Positions 1,831 through 39,277 of a stretch of 64,000 nt of DNA are shown piece after piece. Both the position numbers and the translations under genes were made by a program. The stretch's first letter is position 1. Each line of letters opens with the position of its first letter. The stretch is from the NCBI GenBank assembly GCA_902619265.1, contig CACNDL010000001.1, positions 124,001-188,000 on the forward strand, read 5' to 3'. Origin of the DNA: an uncultured SAR86 cluster bacterium (GTDB lineage Bacteria > Pseudomonadota > Gammaproteobacteria > Magnimaribacterales > TMED112). The notes below the pieces were generated by a model, which made no database searches, was not told where the DNA came from, and saw nothing but the letters and a program-made list of their open reading frames with translations.

Positions 1831-2991
1831 CTATAAATTTGTTTCCTTATACTCAACAATATCTTTTGGTATAACAATCTCTCCATCTCCTGATCTCTCA
1901 TTACCCCAAGCAAGCCTAGTAAAAGTAATAACAGATGCCATTTCTACCTCATTTAACTGTTCAGCAAATGATTGCATCTGACTACCTCTTATACCTTCCA
2001 TTAAAATTTCAATTTGTTTTGCTTTGTCATTCATAACAACATCGCTTCCTGCGAGTGCTGGATAGAATCCAGCAATTCCTGCTCCATTAGTTTGGTGACA
2101 TGCAGCACACCTAGTCTCATATATTTCTTCACCCGTTGCCAATAGCTCTTCCGATGTCCACTCTTTTTCTGTTAGATATGCAATTTGCTCAGCAAGATCT
2201 CTTTTCTGCTGTAGCCATTCTTGATATTCTTCTTGGGTTACTGCTTTAACAACTATTGGCATGTATGCATGACGTTCCCCACATAATTCTGTGCAATTAC
2301 CTCTGTAGATTCCTGGCACATTTACTTTTGTCTTAGCGACATTTATAAAGCCTGGTATGGCATCTTGTTTAACAGCAAAGTCACTCATGTACCAAGAATG
2401 TATTACATCATTGCTTGTAATTAAAAAACGAACGGGCGTGTCTACTGGTATAACTACTGGCTCATCCACCTCTAATAAATAATTCTCTGTCTTTTCAACC
2501 CTATTAAATTCATATTGATCTGGTGGAGTGGTTAAGTTTGAAAAAAAGCTTAATGGTTTGTTTCCAACTTGCTCATCAAGATATTTGTATTGCCATTTCC
2601 ATTGCCACCCAACAACCTGTATGTCAATACCGCCTTCCTCAGCCTCATGATCGTATATTTTTTTTAAAGTAATTGAGGCTGGCACAGCCATTGCAATTAA
2701 AATAAGGGTAGGAATAATGGTCCAAAGTATTTCAACCGTATGGTTTTCAGTAAAAGTTGCAGGCTTCTTATTGTTTGATCTCCTATATTTCCACATGGAC
2801 CAAAACAGAACACCAAAAACAATAACCCCAATAGCAACAACGACAAAAAATATTGCCATATGTAGTCCAAAAACTTCTTTACTTATATCAGTTACACCGA
2901 CAGGCATATTTACGTCCAACCAGTCGGCAGACATAAAAAGTGATATAGGATAGAGAATAAGTGCCCAGAGCTTGTTCTTCATGTACGCCAT
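1831..2991 (-). CDS. ctaC: Cytochrome c oxidase subunit II with C-terminal cytochrome c domain
   Basis: CuA motif CTELCGERHAYM; C-terminal heme motif CAACH. Confidence 0.95.
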   Translation of the reverse strand: MAYMKNKLWALILYPISLFMSADWLDVNMPVGVTDISKEVFGLHMAIFFVVVAIGVIVFGVLFWSMWKYRRSNNKKPATFTENHTVEILWTIIPTLILIAMAVPASITLKKIYDHEAEEGGIDIQVVGWQWKWQYKYLDEQVGNKPLSFFSNLTTPPDQYEFNRVEKTENYLLEVDEPVVIPVDTPVRFLITSNDVIHSWYMSDFAVKQDAIPGFINVAKTKVNVPGIYRGNCTELCGERHAYMPIVVKAVTQEEYQEWLQQKRDLAEQIAYLTEKEWTSEELLATGEEIYETRCAACHQTNGAGIAGFYPALAGSDVVMNDKAKQIEILMEGIRGSQMQSFAEQLNEVEMASVITFTRLAWGNERSGDGEIVIPKDIVEYKETNL

Positions 2992-3010
2992 ATACTACTA
3001 TAAATACCGT

Positions 3011-3035
3011 TAATGTCGAGTAATAAGCGACACTA
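3011..3035 (-). terminator. Hairpin between the yheV-like gene and ctaC (possible terminator or leader)
   Basis: TAATGTCG-agtaataag-CGACACTA, 8-bp stem with one G-U wobble; no strong U-tract. Confidence 0.3.
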
Positions 3036-3047
3036 ATGTATGCTTTT

Positions 3048-3233
3048 TTAGTCGTCTATAATTTTAATAGATTCTATGATGTTAGTGTCTTTTTTACCAA
3101 ATTCTTCCTCTTTCACTTTCAAGTAATTGCAAGAAACACATCTTATTTCTGAATCATCGTTTTTAAGCATTATTGAATCAACGTCTCCGCAAGCAGGACA
3201 TACAGCACCTGCAATGAATTTAAACCCTTTCAT
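3048..3233 (-). CDS. YheV-like zinc-ribbon protein
   Basis: 61 aa with CPACG...CVSCN paired CxxC motifs; overlaps aroE. Confidence 0.7.
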   Translation of the reverse strand: MKGFKFIAGAVCPACGDVDSIMLKNDDSEIRCVSCNYLKVKEEEFGKKDTNIIESIKIIDD

Positions 3234-3978
3234 CTAATAGATTTTTTACCTCTTCAACGCTTGGTTTTTTATCAAACCATAGACGGAAACACTCTGCAGC
3301 CTGCTCTACAAGCATCCCAACTCCATTGTAAAAATTGGCTTTTTTGGAGAGGGAAAGATCTTTTAGTTTTAAATTTGTATCATTCGTATAGTTTATATCG
3401 TAAATGAATCCACCTTCATTTAATGAAAAGTGTTCAAAATTTTTTAAAGTGTTCAAATCTAGTGAGGAGGCGCAAGATATGATTAAATCTAATTGCTCTC
3501 CATCGTATTTATCCAAATTATTTTTTTTGCCAATTAATTCTGAAGATTTTTTTTCAGTTCTATTGCTAATAAATATTTTCTTATTGGAGTTTATTGTTTC
3601 TAATATTGAAGTTGCTGCGCCCCCTAGCCCATACACAAGGATATTCATGTTTTGATAATCAATTTTTTTCGATTCCAAATCATTCAACAAACCAGCACCA
3701 TCAGTAGAGCATGCTTTTGTTCCTTTTCCGTAGATACAATTAATAGATTCGACATCAGGGTTAAATTCTTTTGCAACAATGTGCTTGAATGGTTTTGTAA
3801 TGTTTAATCCAAAGCCCTCATTATCAAAAAACTCATGTACGAAGTTCACTGGATCTTTATCAATATCATAAATTAAATATTCAATTGGATAATTATGTTG
3901 TTTTGCAAACTCTTGATGAATTTTTGGAGAAAGAGAATAGCCAATATCTTTGCCTAAAACCCCTAGTTTATACGCCAT
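3220..3978 (-). CDS. aroE: Shikimate dehydrogenase
   Basis: SLSPKIHQ, NITKPFK and YGLGGAATS motifs. Confidence 0.93.
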   Translation of the reverse strand: MAYKLGVLGKDIGYSLSPKIHQEFAKQHNYPIEYLIYDIDKDPVNFVHEFFDNEGFGLNITKPFKHIVAKEFNPDVESINCIYGKGTKACSTDGAGLLNDLESKKIDYQNMNILVYGLGGAATSILETINSNKKIFISNRTEKKSSELIGKKNNLDKYDGEQLDLIISCASSLDLNTLKNFEHFSLNEGGFIYDINYTNDTNLKLKDLSLSKKANFYNGVGMLVEQAAECFRLWFDKKPSVEEVKNLLDERV

Positions 3979-4888
3979 CGATCCAGTTCCTTGGTATTTT
4001 TAAAACATTGTATAGCTTTTGTTGTGCTTCTGTGAGTTTCTCATCAAACTTATAGTGCCATTCAACCTCATTGGGCAAAGACATTAAAATTGACTCAATC
4101 CTTCCTCCCGACTGAAGCCCAAATAAAGTTCCCCTGTCATATGTAAGGTTAAATTCCACATACCTGCCCCTTCTAAACCTCTGGAATTTTTTTTCATCAT
4201 TCGTGTAGTGTTTGTTTTTATGTTTATCTACGATTTCTATATAGTTTTGAGTAAAACTTTCACTGACTTTCCTTGAAAAAAGTAGGCCCTCATTGAATTG
4301 ATCAAATTTTGTTTTCTCATAAAAAATTCCGCCAATACCTCGATGTTCTTTTCTGTGTGGGATGTAAAAATATTCGTCGCAATTCTTTTTAGACTCTTTA
4401 TAAAAATTAGTTCCAACCATTTCACACGCAGCTTGAGCGCCCTCATGCCATTTTTTGCAATCTTCTTCGTCTAAAATGTATGGTGTAAGGTCAAACCCTC
4501 CCCCAAACCATTCTTCGAAAACTTTATTTTTTTTATATGTGCAGAAATATCGAACATTAAGATGTGCTGTAGGAATGTGGGGGTTTTTAGGATGAAAAAC
4601 AACAGACACCCCTGTAGCGAAAAAAGGCAAACCATTAGAATTGCTTTTACTTCCTACTGATGACTCAGGTAACGACTTTCCAGAAATGCTTGAAAAATTT
4701 ATTCCTGCTTTATCAAAAAAATTGCCATCATCTATCACAACAGAATTTCCATAACCAAGGTCATTTTTTTCCCAATTATCATCCTGAATGTTAGACAGAT
4801 CCTCATATACCTTCAAACTATCTGAAATATCTTTGTGAATATTTTTAAACGCACTAGAAATAGTATTTTGTCTATCTAATATACTCAT
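3968..4888 (-). CDS. hemF: Aerobic coproporphyrinogen III oxidase
   Basis: FGGGFDLTPY, HRKEHRGIGGIFYE and RRGRYVEFNLTYDRGT motifs. Confidence 0.97.
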   Translation of the reverse strand: MSILDRQNTISSAFKNIHKDISDSLKVYEDLSNIQDDNWEKNDLGYGNSVVIDDGNFFDKAGINFSSISGKSLPESSVGSKSNSNGLPFFATGVSVVFHPKNPHIPTAHLNVRYFCTYKKNKVFEEWFGGGFDLTPYILDEEDCKKWHEGAQAACEMVGTNFYKESKKNCDEYFYIPHRKEHRGIGGIFYEKTKFDQFNEGLLFSRKVSESFTQNYIEIVDKHKNKHYTNDEKKFQRFRRGRYVEFNLTYDRGTLFGLQSGGRIESILMSLPNEVEWHYKFDEKLTEAQQKLYNVLKIPRNWIDGV

Positions 4889-33095: not shown

Positions 33096-34918
33096 TGTGT
33101 GGAATAGTTGGCGGCACTTCCGAGAGAAACATTTTACCAATACTGGTTGAGGGTTTAAGAAGGCTTGAATATCGAGGTTACGATTCTGCAGGCGTAGCAT
33201 TTAAAAAAAATGGAACAATCTCCATCACCAAAAACAAAGGGAGAGTAGAGCAGCTTGCTAAAAAACTTAACTTAAAAGAAAACCAAAGCAATTTAGGTAT
33301 AGCGCACACAAGATGGGCAACACATGGCATACCATCAGAAAAAAATGCTCACCCACACGCTAGTAAGAATATTTTTGTTGTACATAATGGAATTATAGAA
33401 AACCACAATGAACTAAAGGCTCAGCTTAAAGCAGAGGGCATTAGGTTTTCTACACAAACAGACACAGAAGTAATTGCACACTTGATTAAAATATATACAG
33501 AGAAAGGCCAAAGTTTTGAGAAAGCCGTATTCAACACTATAAAAAAACTCAAAGGTGCGTACGCACTTGGCATTCTTGATAAGAACGATCCAGAGCAAGT
33601 AATTGGCGTTAGAAATCAAAGCCCACTTGTACTTGGAAAGGGTTTTCAAGAAAACTTTATCGCTTCAGATGTTATGGCCCTGTCCCCTGTTACCAATAAA
33701 TTTGTTTATTTGGATGATGGACAAGTTGCACTACTCAACCACCATAAAACAGTAGTGAAAAATGCATCCAATCAGACTGTTAGGGTTAAGACTCATGAAG
33801 TAGACTCAAATGCCTATACCACCGACCTGCAGGGACACAACCATTTTATGGAAAAAGAAATTTTTGAACAGCCTGCTGCTGTTAAAGATTCGATTGAGGG
33901 CCGCTTAACTAAAAATGAAACGCAAGAAGGGATATTTGGGGCCGGTTTCGAAAATGCAGTAAAAGATATTACCAATATACAAATTGTTGCTTGTGGCACC
34001 AGCTTCCACTCAGCGAGAATATTCGAATTTTGGTCACACAAATTTCTAGGAATAAATTGTCGAGTTGATTACGGCAGCGAATACCAATACCAAGAACCCG
34101 TGAAAACCGATAAAACGCTTTTGGTTACTATTTCACAATCAGGCGAGACTGCAGACACGCTTTCTTCATTAAAATTTGCAAAAAAAACAGGCAACCCTAT
34201 CTCGCTTGCTATTTGCAATGTGGCAAACAGCTCTATCTGCCGAGAATCAGACTTTACACTCTTAACAAACGCAGGCCCAGAAATAGGTGTCGCTTCTACC
34301 AAGGCCTTCGTGACGCAATTAACAGCTTTAAACTTATTATTGCTTACCCTTATGAGGGTTCATGGTTGTCTACCAAGTGCACGAAAAAGAATTACCAAAG
34401 CCTTAAATGAATTACCCAAACATTTAGAAAAAACTCTCAAACAAACTGACGTGTATAAAAAAGTAGCTAAACAGCTCTTCAAAAAAAATAGCACTCTTTT
34501 TCTTGGTAGAGGGCTGTATTTTCCTATCGCCAGAGAAGGCGCTTTGAAACTAAAAGAGATCTCCTACATTCATGCTGAAGCTTATCCTGGTGGTGAGTTA
34601 AAGCATGGGCCTTTAGCTTTAATAGATAAAGATATGCCCGTGATTGCTTTAGTGCCTGACAATGAACATCTAGATAAAATTACTTCCAATATTGCAGAAG
34701 TTGCTGCAAGAAAAGGCAAGGTCTTTACTATTGGGCCACTAGGCAAAACGAAAATTACTAAAGAAGGTGGGCATATAAAGATCCCAAAAACACTAGACCT
34801 TTTGAATCCTATAATCTCTGTAGTTCCAATGCAGCTCATTGCTTATTACACAGCATTATTTAAAGGCACAGATGTTGATAAGCCTCGTAATTTAGCAAAG
34901 AGCGTTACGGTGGAATAG
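33095..34918 (+). CDS. glmS: Glutamine-fructose-6-phosphate aminotransferase (isomerizing)
   Basis: MCGIVGG; LRRLEYRGYDSAGVA; C-terminal KPRNLAKSVTVE. Confidence 0.98.
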   Translation: MCGIVGGTSERNILPILVEGLRRLEYRGYDSAGVAFKKNGTISITKNKGRVEQLAKKLNLKENQSNLGIAHTRWATHGIPSEKNAHPHASKNIFVVHNGIIENHNELKAQLKAEGIRFSTQTDTEVIAHLIKIYTEKGQSFEKAVFNTIKKLKGAYALGILDKNDPEQVIGVRNQSPLVLGKGFQENFIASDVMALSPVTNKFVYLDDGQVALLNHHKTVVKNASNQTVRVKTHEVDSNAYTTDLQGHNHFMEKEIFEQPAAVKDSIEGRLTKNETQEGIFGAGFENAVKDITNIQIVACGTSFHSARIFEFWSHKFLGINCRVDYGSEYQYQEPVKTDKTLLVTISQSGETADTLSSLKFAKKTGNPISLAICNVANSSICRESDFTLLTNAGPEIGVASTKAFVTQLTALNLLLLTLMRVHGCLPSARKRITKALNELPKHLEKTLKQTDVYKKVAKQLFKKNSTLFLGRGLYFPIAREGALKLKEISYIHAEAYPGGELKHGPLALIDKDMPVIALVPDNEHLDKITSNIAEVAARKGKVFTIGPLGKTKITKEGGHIKIPKTLDLLNPIISVVPMQLIAYYTALFKGTDVDKPRNLAKSVTVE

Positions 34919-34989: not shown

Positions 34990-36069
34990 ATGATAAAGAT
35001 TAGATTTGTTCTCTTTATAACTCTGTTAATCAGTTTTCAGATTTTTTCAGGACAAAAATCTACAATCCAAGAAGTAATAGATAAAATTACTCAAAAACAT
35101 TTTGAAGATTCTCAAAACAAAGGTTTATCTATTGGCATAATAGACGGGGATTCTGTTCAATTCTTTTATTTTGGAGGGAAGCACATAAAGGAAATTAAAG
35201 ATGTTGGTCCTAATACATTGTTTGAGTTAGGTTCAATAACAAAACTTTATACTGTTCATGTGTTTAATGAGTTAGAAAAACTAGAGGTTATTAGTAGAAC
35301 GGATTTACTTTCGAAACATCTTCCAGTTGAAATATACGAAGGAAAAAAATGGAATAATCAGATTAGATTGGTTGATGTTATTACCCACACCTCGGGATTG
35401 CCCCCTTTTAGCAGTACTAGAGAATTGGAGGCGATTAAGGGATTTAATTCCGAAGACCCATATAAGGTTTTTGATTCCAATTTTATTCTCAATACACTTA
35501 AGGAACTCGATATAATTTCAAACTATGGCACTGTATCCTATTCCAATTTTGGATATGGAGTTATAGGTTATGTTATGCAAGAAGTAACTAGCACACCTTT
35601 TGAAAACCTGTTTGAAAATTTCATCAACATTGACTTAGGATTGACAAACACTTATCTGAAAATTCCAGAAGAACAATTTACAAACGTTGCTACACCACAC
35701 AAAGGAGATGAACAGGTACCACTAATTCAACTGTATAATCTTTCTCCTGCCGGAAGTGTAAAATCAACACTGCCTGATGTAATGAAGTTTTTAAAATACT
35801 ATTTAGATACTTATGACACTTCGCATCATACAAAATCTATTTTATCCGACCAGTATCCAAATGCTGATGGAATTGTTCCATTGGGATGGGGGACAATTAG
35901 AAAAAATAATATTGATATATTTTTTCATATTGGAGGAACATATGGAAGCAACAGCATAGTGTGTTTAATTCCGGAGAAAAAGATTGGAATATCAATTTTA
36001 TCTAACAATAAGTTAGATAATGGATTAAGCAATTATTTACTAGAGATAGTTGATTTTTACACGAAATAG
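34990..36069 (+). CDS. Serine hydrolase, beta-lactamase/class C-like family
   Basis: Signal peptide; SITK (SxxK), YSN (YxN) and HIGG motifs. Confidence 0.88.
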   Translation: MIKIRFVLFITLLISFQIFSGQKSTIQEVIDKITQKHFEDSQNKGLSIGIIDGDSVQFFYFGGKHIKEIKDVGPNTLFELGSITKLYTVHVFNELEKLEVISRTDLLSKHLPVEIYEGKKWNNQIRLVDVITHTSGLPPFSSTRELEAIKGFNSEDPYKVFDSNFILNTLKELDIISNYGTVSYSNFGYGVIGYVMQEVTSTPFENLFENFINIDLGLTNTYLKIPEEQFTNVATPHKGDEQVPLIQLYNLSPAGSVKSTLPDVMKFLKYYLDTYDTSHHTKSILSDQYPNADGIVPLGWGTIRKNNIDIFFHIGGTYGSNSIVCLIPEKKIGISILSNNKLDNGLSNYLLEIVDFYTK

Positions 36070-36160: not shown

Positions 36161-36535
36161 ATGAAAAACTTCTTTATAAACCTAACATTGATATTTTTTA
36201 TATCTAGTTGCACCTCTTTTAACTATCAATTTGATGATTCCCAAGAACAAGGTATAAAGATAGTTAATAATACAATCTCTCAAAAGACAATCTATCTTAG
36301 ATTTCTCATTCCCGGATTATCTGAAAAAGAATCTAGGAATTCAGGTACTAAACACACACTTTATCCTGGTCAATCAAAAGTATATTATCTGCCAGAAGAA
36401 ACTATGGTAGTTGCTACTGATGGACCTTACTGGGATAATCCCAACCCACAAAAACCTAATGAACGAGAAGTCCTTTATGTTGAAAAAGATATTATTTCAA
36501 AAGTAGATATAGACACACTTCTTTTCGCAAATTAA
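36161..36535 (+). CDS. Putative lipoprotein of unknown function
   Basis: MKNFFINLTLIFFISSCTSF lipobox-like N-terminus. Confidence 0.6.
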   Translation: MKNFFINLTLIFFISSCTSFNYQFDDSQEQGIKIVNNTISQKTIYLRFLIPGLSEKESRNSGTKHTLYPGQSKVYYLPEETMVVATDGPYWDNPNPQKPNEREVLYVEKDIISKVDIDTLLFAN

Positions 36536-36557: not shown

Positions 36558-36576
36558 ACACTCGGTTACTGTAGAA
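36558..36576 (+). repeat. Imperfect direct repeat, copy 1, at the 5' edge of the SRA-HNH gene
   Basis: ACACTCGGTTACTGTAGAA; 16/19 identical to 38222-38240. Confidence 0.55.
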
Positions 36577-38210
36577 TGAAACCAAAATTTTCTACAATTA
36601 TTGATGAATTAAAAAAATACAAAAACACAAATGGAGACCTAAAGATTCCTCGGACGTATAAGGCAGATGGGTTTAATTTAGGTCACTGGTTACAATATAC
36701 AAGAGTATCAGTCATTAATAAAAAATCTCAATTAACTAAAGAACAAATAAATCAATTAAAGTCATTAGGCATAGATTTCTCTTTAAGGCGGAAGGCAGCA
36801 GTTACTCACAATGAAGAGGATTACCTTAATGCGTTTAAAAAATATTTTTACAGAGAGGGACACCTAAATATTCATAGAAAACATAAAGAAGATGGACTGA
36901 ACCTCGTGTATAAGAAAACACATTTCAAAAGAAAATATAAAGAACAACGCCTTTCAAAAGAGATTATTGAATTCTTTGAAAGTGTTCCTGGTTGGGAATG
37001 GGACTACATACACCCAGAAAAAATAACATTTGAAAAGGGAGTTGCCCTACTTAAAGAATATCAAAAAGAAAATGGACATTTACGAATATCTAGAAAGGAA
37101 ATAATAAATGGAATAAATTTAGCGTATTGGGCGGGAGGACAAAGAAAGAAATACAAAAAAGGGGAATTAGAAAACTTCAAAATAAATGAATTAGAAAGCA
37201 TCCCAAATTGGGAATGGAGTACAAAAAAATACACTGAATTTAGAGAGGGAAACTTTAAAACGGTTGAAAAAAACATGACTAACTATAAAGACTCGGACAA
37301 ATTTAAAAGAGTTCAAAAGAATAAGGAAGAATTAATCTTTGGACATATTGAAGGAGTTCAGGTTGGTCAGATTTTTGAATCAAGAAAAGAACTTTCAAAA
37401 TTTGGACTTCATGCACCTACTATGGCAGGCATTTGGGGAAGAGAGAACGAGGGTTCTTGTTCAATAGTTTTGTCTGGTGGTTACGAGGATGATATAGATA
37501 ATTTAGATTACATTCTTTATACAGGACAAGGCGGTCAGGATGCTCGCGGCAAACAAGTCTCTGACCAAGAGTTTTCGAGAAGAAATAAAGGACTTCAATT
37601 AAGTTGTGAATATGGTCTACCGGTGAGAGTTACTAGAGGACACCAAATTCAAAACGGACCTGAAAGCGGATACCGATATGATGGACTCTATTATGTGACC
37701 TCATACGAAAGAATTATTGGTAAAAGCGGTCACTATATTTGTAGATTTCATCTTGAAAGCGAATTATCTATTTCTGATTTAGAAAAAAAATTAGATGAGA
37801 ATTTGCCTGAGAACTACAAAACCGCCCATAGAACGGAAACAACCATCAATAAAATAAATCGAAATATAAAACTGAGAGAAAAAATTAAAGAAATTTACAG
37901 TCATAAATGCCAGATATGCAATGTCTATCTTAGAAAACCTCACGGTGCTATTGCTATTGGTGCTCACATTAAAGGTTTGGGGCAACCACACAATGGACCT
38001 GATACTTTAGGCAATATGTTGTGTTTGTGCCCAAACCATCATGATCAATTCGATGCGTTTGCGTTTTATATAGATCCAGAAACATTTACTATTAAGGGTC
38101 TTGAGGGGTATGAGGAAGTTAAGTTAACTATTTCAAAGAATCATAAAATAGATAAACAGTTCCTTGAGTATCACAAGGATCAGTATGAGAAAAAAACCAG
38201 TGAGATCTAA
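36576..38210 (+). CDS. Probable modification-dependent (type IV) restriction endonuclease: helicase-associated repeats x3 + SRA/YDG + HNH
   Basis: Three ~65-aa repeats ending in W-type motifs (PGWEWDY, PNWEWST); SRA block GQIFESRKELSKFGLHAPTMAGIWG...SIVLSGGYEDD...YTGQGGQD...GYRYDGLYYV; HNH CQIC...AHIKGLGQPHNGPDTLGNMLCLCPNHHDQFD. Confidence 0.88.
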   Translation: MKPKFSTIIDELKKYKNTNGDLKIPRTYKADGFNLGHWLQYTRVSVINKKSQLTKEQINQLKSLGIDFSLRRKAAVTHNEEDYLNAFKKYFYREGHLNIHRKHKEDGLNLVYKKTHFKRKYKEQRLSKEIIEFFESVPGWEWDYIHPEKITFEKGVALLKEYQKENGHLRISRKEIINGINLAYWAGGQRKKYKKGELENFKINELESIPNWEWSTKKYTEFREGNFKTVEKNMTNYKDSDKFKRVQKNKEELIFGHIEGVQVGQIFESRKELSKFGLHAPTMAGIWGRENEGSCSIVLSGGYEDDIDNLDYILYTGQGGQDARGKQVSDQEFSRRNKGLQLSCEYGLPVRVTRGHQIQNGPESGYRYDGLYYVTSYERIIGKSGHYICRFHLESELSISDLEKKLDENLPENYKTAHRTETTINKINRNIKLREKIKEIYSHKCQICNVYLRKPHGAIAIGAHIKGLGQPHNGPDTLGNMLCLCPNHHDQFDAFAFYIDPETFTIKGLEGYEEVKLTISKNHKIDKQFLEYHKDQYEKKTSEI

Positions 38211-38221
38211 TGTTGCTACGG

Positions 38222-38240
38222 ACACTCTGCTACTGTTGAA
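38222..38240 (+). repeat. Imperfect direct repeat, copy 2, 3' of the SRA-HNH gene
   Basis: ACACTCTGCTACTGTTGAA; 16/19 identical to 36558-36576. Confidence 0.55.
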
Positions 38241-38248
38241 TAAATTAA

Positions 38249-38635
38249 ATGAATAGAAAGTCTATTTATTACATTATTTTTGCTATTTCTTTTTTGCTTT
38301 TTTCTATAGTCCAGGATTACATAAGACCAAATTACGATGGTGCTAATGGAATAATAATTTATCTTCTTGGGGTTGCTCCAAATTTCTTACCAGGAATTGG
38401 ATTGCCTGCTCTGTTATATGTAGTAATTCCAGAAGTATCCAAACCTAATTCATCTTTATTTAAAAATCGACTCTATTGGTCAGTAGGAATCTCCATATCG
38501 GGATTAATTGCCAATGAGTTCATTACAATTTTTACACCTGGAAGAGGTGTCTTCGATTGGAATGATATTCTATGGACTATAATTGGAACAGGTTTGTTTA
38601 TATTGATACACAGAAAGTTAAGATTTGAGTCATGA
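38249..38635 (+). CDS. Hypothetical membrane protein
   Basis: 128 aa, several hydrophobic segments; overlaps next ORF. Confidence 0.65.
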   Translation: MNRKSIYYIIFAISFLLFSIVQDYIRPNYDGANGIIIYLLGVAPNFLPGIGLPALLYVVIPEVSKPNSSLFKNRLYWSVGISISGLIANEFITIFTPGRGVFDWNDILWTIIGTGLFILIHRKLRFES

Positions 38636-38989: not shown

Positions 38990-39277
38990 ATGGAAATAAA
39001 TTGGGTAGTAGTTGGTTGGATTATTGACATGATCTTAAACGGGGTTGTGTGGCTGATCATCGCAGCAGTATCTTTGCCACTAATTGATATTGCAGATAAA
39101 TGGACAAGAAAAGCCCTTAAATCCATGGATAAAATTGATGTATGGATTAGAGAATTTGTCGAAAACTCATTTGAATGGGTTCTAAAGAAGAACCTTACAA
39201 TACTCTCAAGCATCGTATTATTAATTGTCTTGGGTGCCCTCTCTCAATTAGGAGTAATACCGAAGCTAATAACTTAA
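38990..39277 (+). CDS. Hypothetical membrane protein
   Basis: 95 aa; two predicted TM segments. Confidence 0.6.
   Translation: MEINWVVVGWIIDMILNGVVWLIIAAVSLPLIDIADKWTRKALKSMDKIDVWIREFVENSFEWVLKKNLTILSSIVLLIVLGALSQLGVIPKLIT

What the first reader, a model, noticed from the sequence alone, without database searches (positions are those of the whole stretch)
36576..38210. HA-SRA-HNH protein: candidate modification-dependent nuclease with an unusual N-terminal targeting module
Seen: three tandem helicase-associated-type repeats (aa ~5-215), a full SRA/YDG block (aa ~254-395) and an HNH block (aa ~445-492) in one 544-aa ORF. Established: SRA domains bind modified cytosine in DNA, and SRA+HNH fusions are predicted or shown type IV restriction enzymes. 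Inference: helicase-associated (PF03457-like) repeats normally sit on helicase-like proteins and their role is unclear. Fused here to SRA-HNH without any helicase, they may add sequence or structure recognition. No methyltransferase lies nearby, consistent with type IV logic.
Basis: partly seen in the sequence, partly recalled or inferred. Interest (0 to 1): 0.75.

Follow-up and report, generated by a model that had tools for sequence, protein, structure and literature searches.

The report
HA-SRA-HNH nuclease in glmS cassette array
A marine SAR86 bacterium carries an enzyme that probably cuts foreign DNA bearing modified cytosines, with an unusual front end, and its gene is one cassette in an apparently undescribed array of exchangeable gene cassettes attached to the end of the glmS gene.

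Summary
In detail: one intact 544-aa ORF carries three helicase-associated (HA) repeats, a full SRA domain and an HNH domain. The SRA-HNH part is a TagI-type modification-dependent endonuclease with its pocket and catalytic residues kept. HA fused to SRA-HNH was found nowhere else in the collections searched.

The larger result is the context. The genome is SAR86. The gene is one of a tandem series of cassettes behind glmS, separated by copies of the last ~18 bp of glmS (Ser-Val-Thr-Val-Glu-stop). A same-genus genome lacks this stretch, with the break inside the core. Such arrays occur in roughly half of 204 SAR86-order genomes and are almost absent from other Gammaproteobacteria sampled. Cassette ends are inverted repeats of each other that vary between cassettes but covary. 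Wobble positions place the crossover at one point in the core: conservative site-specific recombination, formally integron-like, yet most of these genomes hold only two Xer-like tyrosine recombinases.

All four SRA-HNH genes found in SAR86 lie in such cassettes, each with a different N-terminus; two share a ~90% identical core with unrelated N-termini. I read HA as an exchangeable recognition module. No activity was tested.

The parts
36576..38210 (+). HA x3 - SRA - HNH protein, 544 aa
36588..37226 (+). three HA (PF03457) repeats, about aa 5-217
   Evidence: two of the repeats located separately; repeat 1 modelled as a three-helix unit at pLDDT about 80
37338..37757 (+). SRA domain aa 255-394; pocket residues I286, Y303, D306, Y315
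   Evidence: residues mapped on the TagI alignment with the residues named in PMC6212794
37908..38075 (+). HNH domain aa 445-500; H464, D476, N480, H489, D493; zinc ligands C445, C448, C485, H488
34901..34918 (+). 3' end of glmS (AGC GTT ACG GTG GAA TAG): anchor site of the array
   Evidence: direct reading; order-wide anchor
36562..36579 (+). R1: copy of the glmS end (TCG GTT ACT GTA GAA TGA); its last bases supply the ATG of the HA-SRA-HNH gene
38226..38243 (+). R2: copy of the glmS end (TCT GCT ACT GTT GAA TAA); identity to same-genus G014 begins inside it at 38232
34990..36069 (+). beta-lactamase-family protein (PF00144), first cassette region
36161..36535 (+). small lipoprotein-like gene; 90% identical homologue in a cassette of another SAR86 family
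38249..38635 (+). 128-aa membrane protein that directly follows glmS in same-genus G014; recurrent cassette gene
38990..39277 (+). 95-aa protein recurrent in SAR86 glmS arrays

Best explanation
The gene encodes a TagI-like type IV (modification-dependent) restriction endonuclease. The SRA domain flips out and senses a modified cytosine (5mC or 5hmC), and dimerised HNH domains nick or cut nearby. The three HA repeats are an added DNA-binding module that modulates target choice or affinity. The gene travels as one cassette of a tandem, integron-like array anchored at the 3' end of glmS: each cassette carries the right half of the glmS-end core at its left end and the left half at its right end, and is inserted by conservative site-specific recombination at the centre of the core. 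The SRA-HNH core has passed between SAR86 lineages while its N-terminal module was exchanged. Shown by computation: domains, conserved residues, cassette boundaries, presence/absence against a same-genus genome, crossover position, shared core with different N-termini. Inferred: modification-dependent cleavage, an anti-phage role, HA function, mobility today, and which recombinase acts.
For: Domains and TagI homology with pocket and catalytic residues kept. Core 90% identical in DNA to a gene in another SAR86 family whose glmS is only 46% identical in protein, the match ending at the 3' core repeat. Four SAR86 SRA-HNH genes with four different N-termini, all in arrays. One N-terminal module has a free-standing homologue in a cassette behind glmS. 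Array: clustered co-oriented glmS-end copies order-wide, rare outside; covarying inverted-repeat ends; half-core histories that fix the crossover; breakpoint against G014 at the same point. Other cassettes carry restriction enzymes and nucleases.
Against: No biochemical or phage data. HA function is unproven and only repeat 1 gave a usable model. TagI Asn259, important there, is Ala here. The window's own two cassettes lack self-matching arms, so they may be rearranged and no longer mobile. No dedicated recombinase was found.
Confidence: 0.68

Rival explanations
1. HA supplies the main target recognition and the SRA domain no longer senses modification, as reported for HHPV4I, where a winged helix and not the SRA-like domain senses the modified base.
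For: Precedent in PMC10101028 and PMC11037411. A 217-residue added module is a large investment if it only tunes affinity.
Against: The SRA pocket residues are intact, the core is under purifying selection, and the same core works with other N-termini or with none in relatives.
Confidence: 0.15
2. The glmS-end repeats come from target-site duplication by a transposon- or casposon-like element, not from site-specific recombination between cores.
For: Inverted repeats at cassette ends and a repeated target at a gene's 3' end look like transposon or casposon insertions; no dedicated site-specific recombinase was seen.
Against: A duplication would leave both flanking cores host-derived. Instead the two halves of the core have different histories, split at the dyad centre, and the break against G014 lies at the same place.
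Confidence: 0.12
3. The HA fusion is a chance by-product of cassette rearrangement: HA is inert or only stabilises the protein, and the enzyme behaves as plain TagI.
For: The architecture is seen once; the ATG lies in the core repeat R1 and the left arm does not match the right arm, as after a rearrangement.
Against: Three intact HA repeats without stop or frameshift score far above the Pfam cut-off; relatives also keep N-terminal extensions of other kinds.
Confidence: 0.2

Closest known systems
TagI and the SRA-HNH restriction endonucleases (ScoA3IV, TbiR51I); PDB 6GHS, PMC6212794
   Same: SRA followed by HNH, homologous over aa 254-537, same pocket and catalytic residues, zinc site of the CxxC...CxxH type
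   Different: TagI starts directly with the SRA; here three HA repeats precede it. TagI Asn259 is Ala494
ScoMcrA (head-SBD-SRA-HNH), PMC7461809
   Same: An extra DNA-binding module in front of SRA-HNH
   Different: The module there is a sulfur-binding domain; here HA repeats, which were not found with SRA elsewhere
HA-repeat helicases (PF03457)
   Same: Tandem HA repeats of the same Pfam family
   Different: No helicase domain; HA is fused to a nuclease
Integron gene-cassette arrays (attI/attC, IntI)
   Same: Tandem, mostly single-gene, co-oriented cassettes at one anchor; ends pair with each other while the arm sequence varies; crossover at a fixed point in a short core
   Different: Core is the coding 3' end of glmS; the arms are split between both cassette ends; no third tyrosine recombinase in most of these genomes
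Additive flexible genomic islands and tycheposons (Ca. Methylopumilus tRNA-Lys 3'-end repeats, PMC10872708)
   Same: Streamlined aquatic bacteria; island extended by repeats of a gene's 3' end; variable accessory cargo
   Different: Target is a protein gene (glmS) and not a tRNA; covarying arms and the crossover point are resolved here; no integrase seen in the arrays
Tn7-like insertion at attTn7
   Same: Same chromosomal neighbourhood, downstream of glmS
   Different: Tn7 inserts beyond the stop codon without repeating the glmS end (own knowledge); here the coding end is the recombining site and is repeated

Membership tests
SRA-HNH (TagI-type) modification-dependent endonucleases | SRA domain with the flipped-base pocket (TagI I38, Y55, D58, Y67) | tested here: met
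   PF02182 E=2.3e-47; I286, Y303, D306, Y315 on the TagI alignment
SRA-HNH (TagI-type) modification-dependent endonucleases | HNH active site (TagI H229, N245, H254 with D241, D258) and structural zinc site | tested here: met
   H464, N480, H489, D476, D493; C445/C448 and C485/H488
SRA-HNH (TagI-type) modification-dependent endonucleases | Asn259 at the dimer interface | tested here: not met
   Ala494 here, Asp or Ala in the SAR86 relatives. TagI N259A is weakly active (PMC6212794); this is an auxiliary and not a family-defining residue
SRA-HNH (TagI-type) modification-dependent endonucleases | Cleavage that depends on 5mC or 5hmC | not testable with these tools
   needs the purified protein or a restriction test
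HA (PF03457) helicase-associated repeat proteins | Tandem HA repeats | tested here: met
   three stretches, 102 bits against a cut-off of 28.4
HA (PF03457) helicase-associated repeat proteins | Attached to a helicase-like protein | tested here: not met
   no helicase family matched in this protein
Integron | Tandem co-oriented cassettes at one anchor site with repeated recombination sites | tested here: met
Integron | Site structure conserved through base pairing while sequence varies, with a fixed crossover point | tested here: met
Integron | Dedicated integron integrase (IntI) | tested here: not met
   16 of 20 array-bearing genomes, among them three single-contig genomes and the window's own, have at most two PF00589 proteins, of XerC/XerD size; IntI-specific features were not examined
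Integron | attC boxes (RYYYAAC / GTTRRRY) | not tested
   the core found here is glmS-derived; no formal attC model was run
Additive flexible genomic island / tycheposon | Island extended by repeats of the 3' end of the target gene | tested here: met
Additive flexible genomic island / tycheposon | tRNA target and element-encoded tyrosine recombinase (tycheposon) | tested here: not met
   target is glmS; no tRNA in the window; none of 30 cassette proteins scanned is a recombinase
Tn7-like transposon | Insertion beyond the glmS stop codon without repeating the coding end | tested here: not met
   the coding end is repeated and carries the crossover; tns genes were not searched

The most novel reading that the evidence does not exclude
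SAR86, an abundant ocean bacterial group, uses an undescribed integron-like system: gene cassettes with structure-conserved, sequence-variable arms recombine at the stop-codon end of glmS without a dedicated integrase (by XerC/XerD, or by a recombinase supplied from outside). Its nuclease-rich cargo includes type IV enzymes whose recognition modules are exchanged and also circulate as free-standing cassettes.
Probability: 0.45. Interest if true: 0.88.

Novelty: new variant of a known kind. Interest (0 to 1): 0.74.

Why it matters
The enzyme is a testable case of a type IV nuclease whose sensor core stays fixed while its N-terminal module is exchanged, and it offers a context in which the unclear function of HA repeats can be assayed. 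The cassette array matters more: it would explain how a streamlined, largely uncultured ocean bacterium gains and loses defence genes, it gives precise cassette boundaries for mining new defence genes, and it poses a clear question, namely which recombinase moves the cassettes.

Tried and rejected
Viral-contig scans failed three times, so phage or satellite carriers of the core or of a recombinase were not examined. AlphaFold without an alignment gave a usable model only for HA repeat 1 and nothing for the G065 N-terminus, so no fold search was run. The G065 N-terminus matches no Pfam family and no solved structure. Tn7 insertion and target-site duplication were considered and set aside because of the half-core histories. 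Incompatibility with host 5mC methylation: 0 of 4 SRA-HNH genomes have a C5-MTase, but the background is only 26%, so this says nothing. A serine resolvase as the mover: found in 1 of 20 genomes. Two papers surveying SRA-HNH and related enzymes (PMC6765204, PMC4333417) are not held, so a published HA-SRA-HNH protein cannot be excluded. A first idea that the gene was simply a defence gene next to attTn7 was dropped once the repeats were seen.

Full report
OBSERVATION. The ORF at 36576-38210 is real and intact. Pfam finds three HA stretches (PF03457, E 2e-29), SRA (PF02182, E 2e-47, aa 255-394) and HNH_2 (PF13391, E 3e-10, aa 445-500). The nearest solved structure is TagI (6GHS, E 3.5e-53, aa 254-537). 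Residues named in the TagI paper (PMC6212794), mapped by me on that alignment: pocket I38/Y55/D58/Y67 = I286/Y303/D306/Y315; catalytic H229/N245/H254 with D241 and D258 = H464/N480/H489 with D476 and D493; zinc ligands C445/C448 and C485/H488; H288 = H523. Only N259, whose Ala variant is weakly active in TagI, differs (Ala494). The nuclease reading is well supported by sequence; no activity was measured.

HOW RARE IS THE ARCHITECTURE. HA together with SRA was seen only in this protein: not among 204 SAR86-order genomes, 369 gammaproteobacterial genomes or 399 Pseudomonadota genomes (the samples overlap), nor in the phage collection or the plasmid collection (no place covering 80% of the query). 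The genome-contig scan relies on exact peptide seeds and returned two relatives, both without HA. HA elsewhere sits mainly in long proteins, many annotated as helicases. The papers read on SRA-HNH and related enzymes do not mention HA or helicase domains, but the library holds open papers only.

THE SAME CORE WITH OTHER N-TERMINI. The closest relative is in SAR86 AG-359-G23 (L002, the same contig as G065). Its core is identical at 264 of 291 residues and about 90% in DNA from the start of the SRA to the end of the 3' core repeat, whereas glmS next door is only 46% identical in protein with saturated synonymous sites. So the core moved between lineages, and it is under purifying selection (dN/dS about 0.12). 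The N-termini are unrelated: HA x3 here, a ~125-aa domain of unknown fold there. G040 has a third N-terminus of ~95 aa and G098 has none. The G040 module has a homologue that stands alone as an 85-aa gene directly behind glmS in same-genus G009 (33% identity, pairwise E 1e-8). This supports module exchange; how the fusions form is not shown.

THE ARRAY. The sequence after the gene reads S-A-T-V-E-stop and the one before it S-V-T-V-E-stop: copies of the last codons of glmS. A pattern for that end (TCNGTNACNGTNGARTRN) occurs two or more times on one strand in roughly 110 of 204 SAR86-order genomes (my count), up to ten times, in tight co-oriented clusters; the reversed pattern gives 0 or 1 per strand. 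In 366 other gammaproteobacterial genomes it is typically found once, as expected for glmS itself; among the positions listed only G551 has a clustered pair. Of 40 fetched loci, 38 begin at glmS, and none has a reversed copy. All four SRA-HNH genes of the order lie in such cassettes, although for G098 the contig ends before any glmS.

INSERTION IN THIS GENOME. In same-genus G014, glmS is followed directly by the 128-aa gene that in the window follows R2. The alignment of the two begins inside the repeat, at the AC of the core (window 38232). So about 3.3 kb (the beta-lactamase-like and lipoprotein genes, and the HA-SRA-HNH gene) is inserted in the window, or deleted in G014, with its break at the core. 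G009 also lacks these genes. Flanking small genes have 64-97% identical homologues inside cassettes of other SAR86 families.

THE SITE. Across 96 distinct cassettes the ~17 bases after the core and the ~17 before the next one are inverted repeats at one offset only: 56% Watson-Crick, against 27-33% at other offsets and 36% (sd 1.3%) when ends are re-paired at random. All four pair types occur at most positions, so the arms covary and do not just share a sequence. The dyad centre falls at core position 6.5. Independently, sites that share a right flank agree at wobble positions 11, 14 and 17 but not at 2 and 5, and sites that share a left flank agree at 2 and 5 but not at 8, 11, 14 and 17; background disagreement is 0.5-0.7. 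Group-level sign tests give p = 6e-5 and 0.018. The crossover therefore lies at the AC of the threonine codon, at the dyad centre. Predicted junctions of excised cassettes fold as hairpins more often than re-paired controls (56% against 21% at -6 kcal/mol or lower). This is the pattern of conservative site-specific recombination and argues against target-site duplication.

WHAT MOVES IT. Sixteen of 20 array-bearing or related SAR86 genomes, including this one, have at most two tyrosine recombinases, both of Xer size, and a serine resolvase was found in one of 20. No recombinase family appeared among 30 cassette proteins scanned. XerC/XerD or a recombinase from outside are the candidates; this is inference.

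CARGO. The cassette proteins scanned include a C5 methyltransferase, MvaI/BcnI-type and type III restriction enzymes, several HNH proteins, an HsdR-N protein and a NucS/YhcG-like nuclease. I chose these proteins as likely nucleases or recurrent families, so enrichment is an impression and not a statistic. Most ORFs of 80 aa or more (128 of 147) run in the direction of glmS.

LIMITS. The 40 loci were chosen because they had strict core matches, which biases the core towards the pattern but not the arms or the half-core contrast. Cassettes from related genomes are not independent; the group-level test corrects only partly. The window's two cassettes do not have self-matching arms, so they may be rearranged remnants. 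I found no paper describing a glmS-end array in SAR86; the nearest published relative is the tRNA-Lys repeat island of Ca. Methylopumilus.

Noticed in passing
L052 (G098 contig C18), about 2371-4348 in array orientation: A second cassette cluster in G098 with no glmS in the 2.4 kb before the contig end; the glmS-linked array of the same genome is on contig C1. Either a second array or an assembly effect.
   Followed up: no
L027, L032, L039, L042, L043, L049: A ~1.5-kb cassette with two sulfotransferase-like genes recurs in arrays of different SAR86 genomes.
   Followed up: partly
L021:2610-2951 and homologues in L017, L029, L031, L046: A 114-aa HTH-like protein without Pfam match recurs in five arrays; it looks to me like the DNA-binding part of a recombinase or regulator.
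   Followed up: partly
window 36576-36578, and other cores ending GAATGA: The start codon of the HA-SRA-HNH gene lies in the core repeat (GAATGA: stop TGA overlapping ATG), which next to glmS could couple cassette translation to glmS.
   Followed up: no
G551 contig C15:143430-144426: The only clustered pair of glmS-end copies seen outside SAR86 in the listed matches, 980 bp apart, in a ~1-Mb genome.
   Followed up: no
L051 6653 and 6677 in array orientation: Two cores only 24 bp apart, as if an empty cassette or a core-to-core junction.
   Followed up: no
L086 (G572) and L087 (G802): SRA-HNH relatives without HA in other Pseudomonadota (47% and 42% identity; the second with one in-frame stop).
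   Followed up: no
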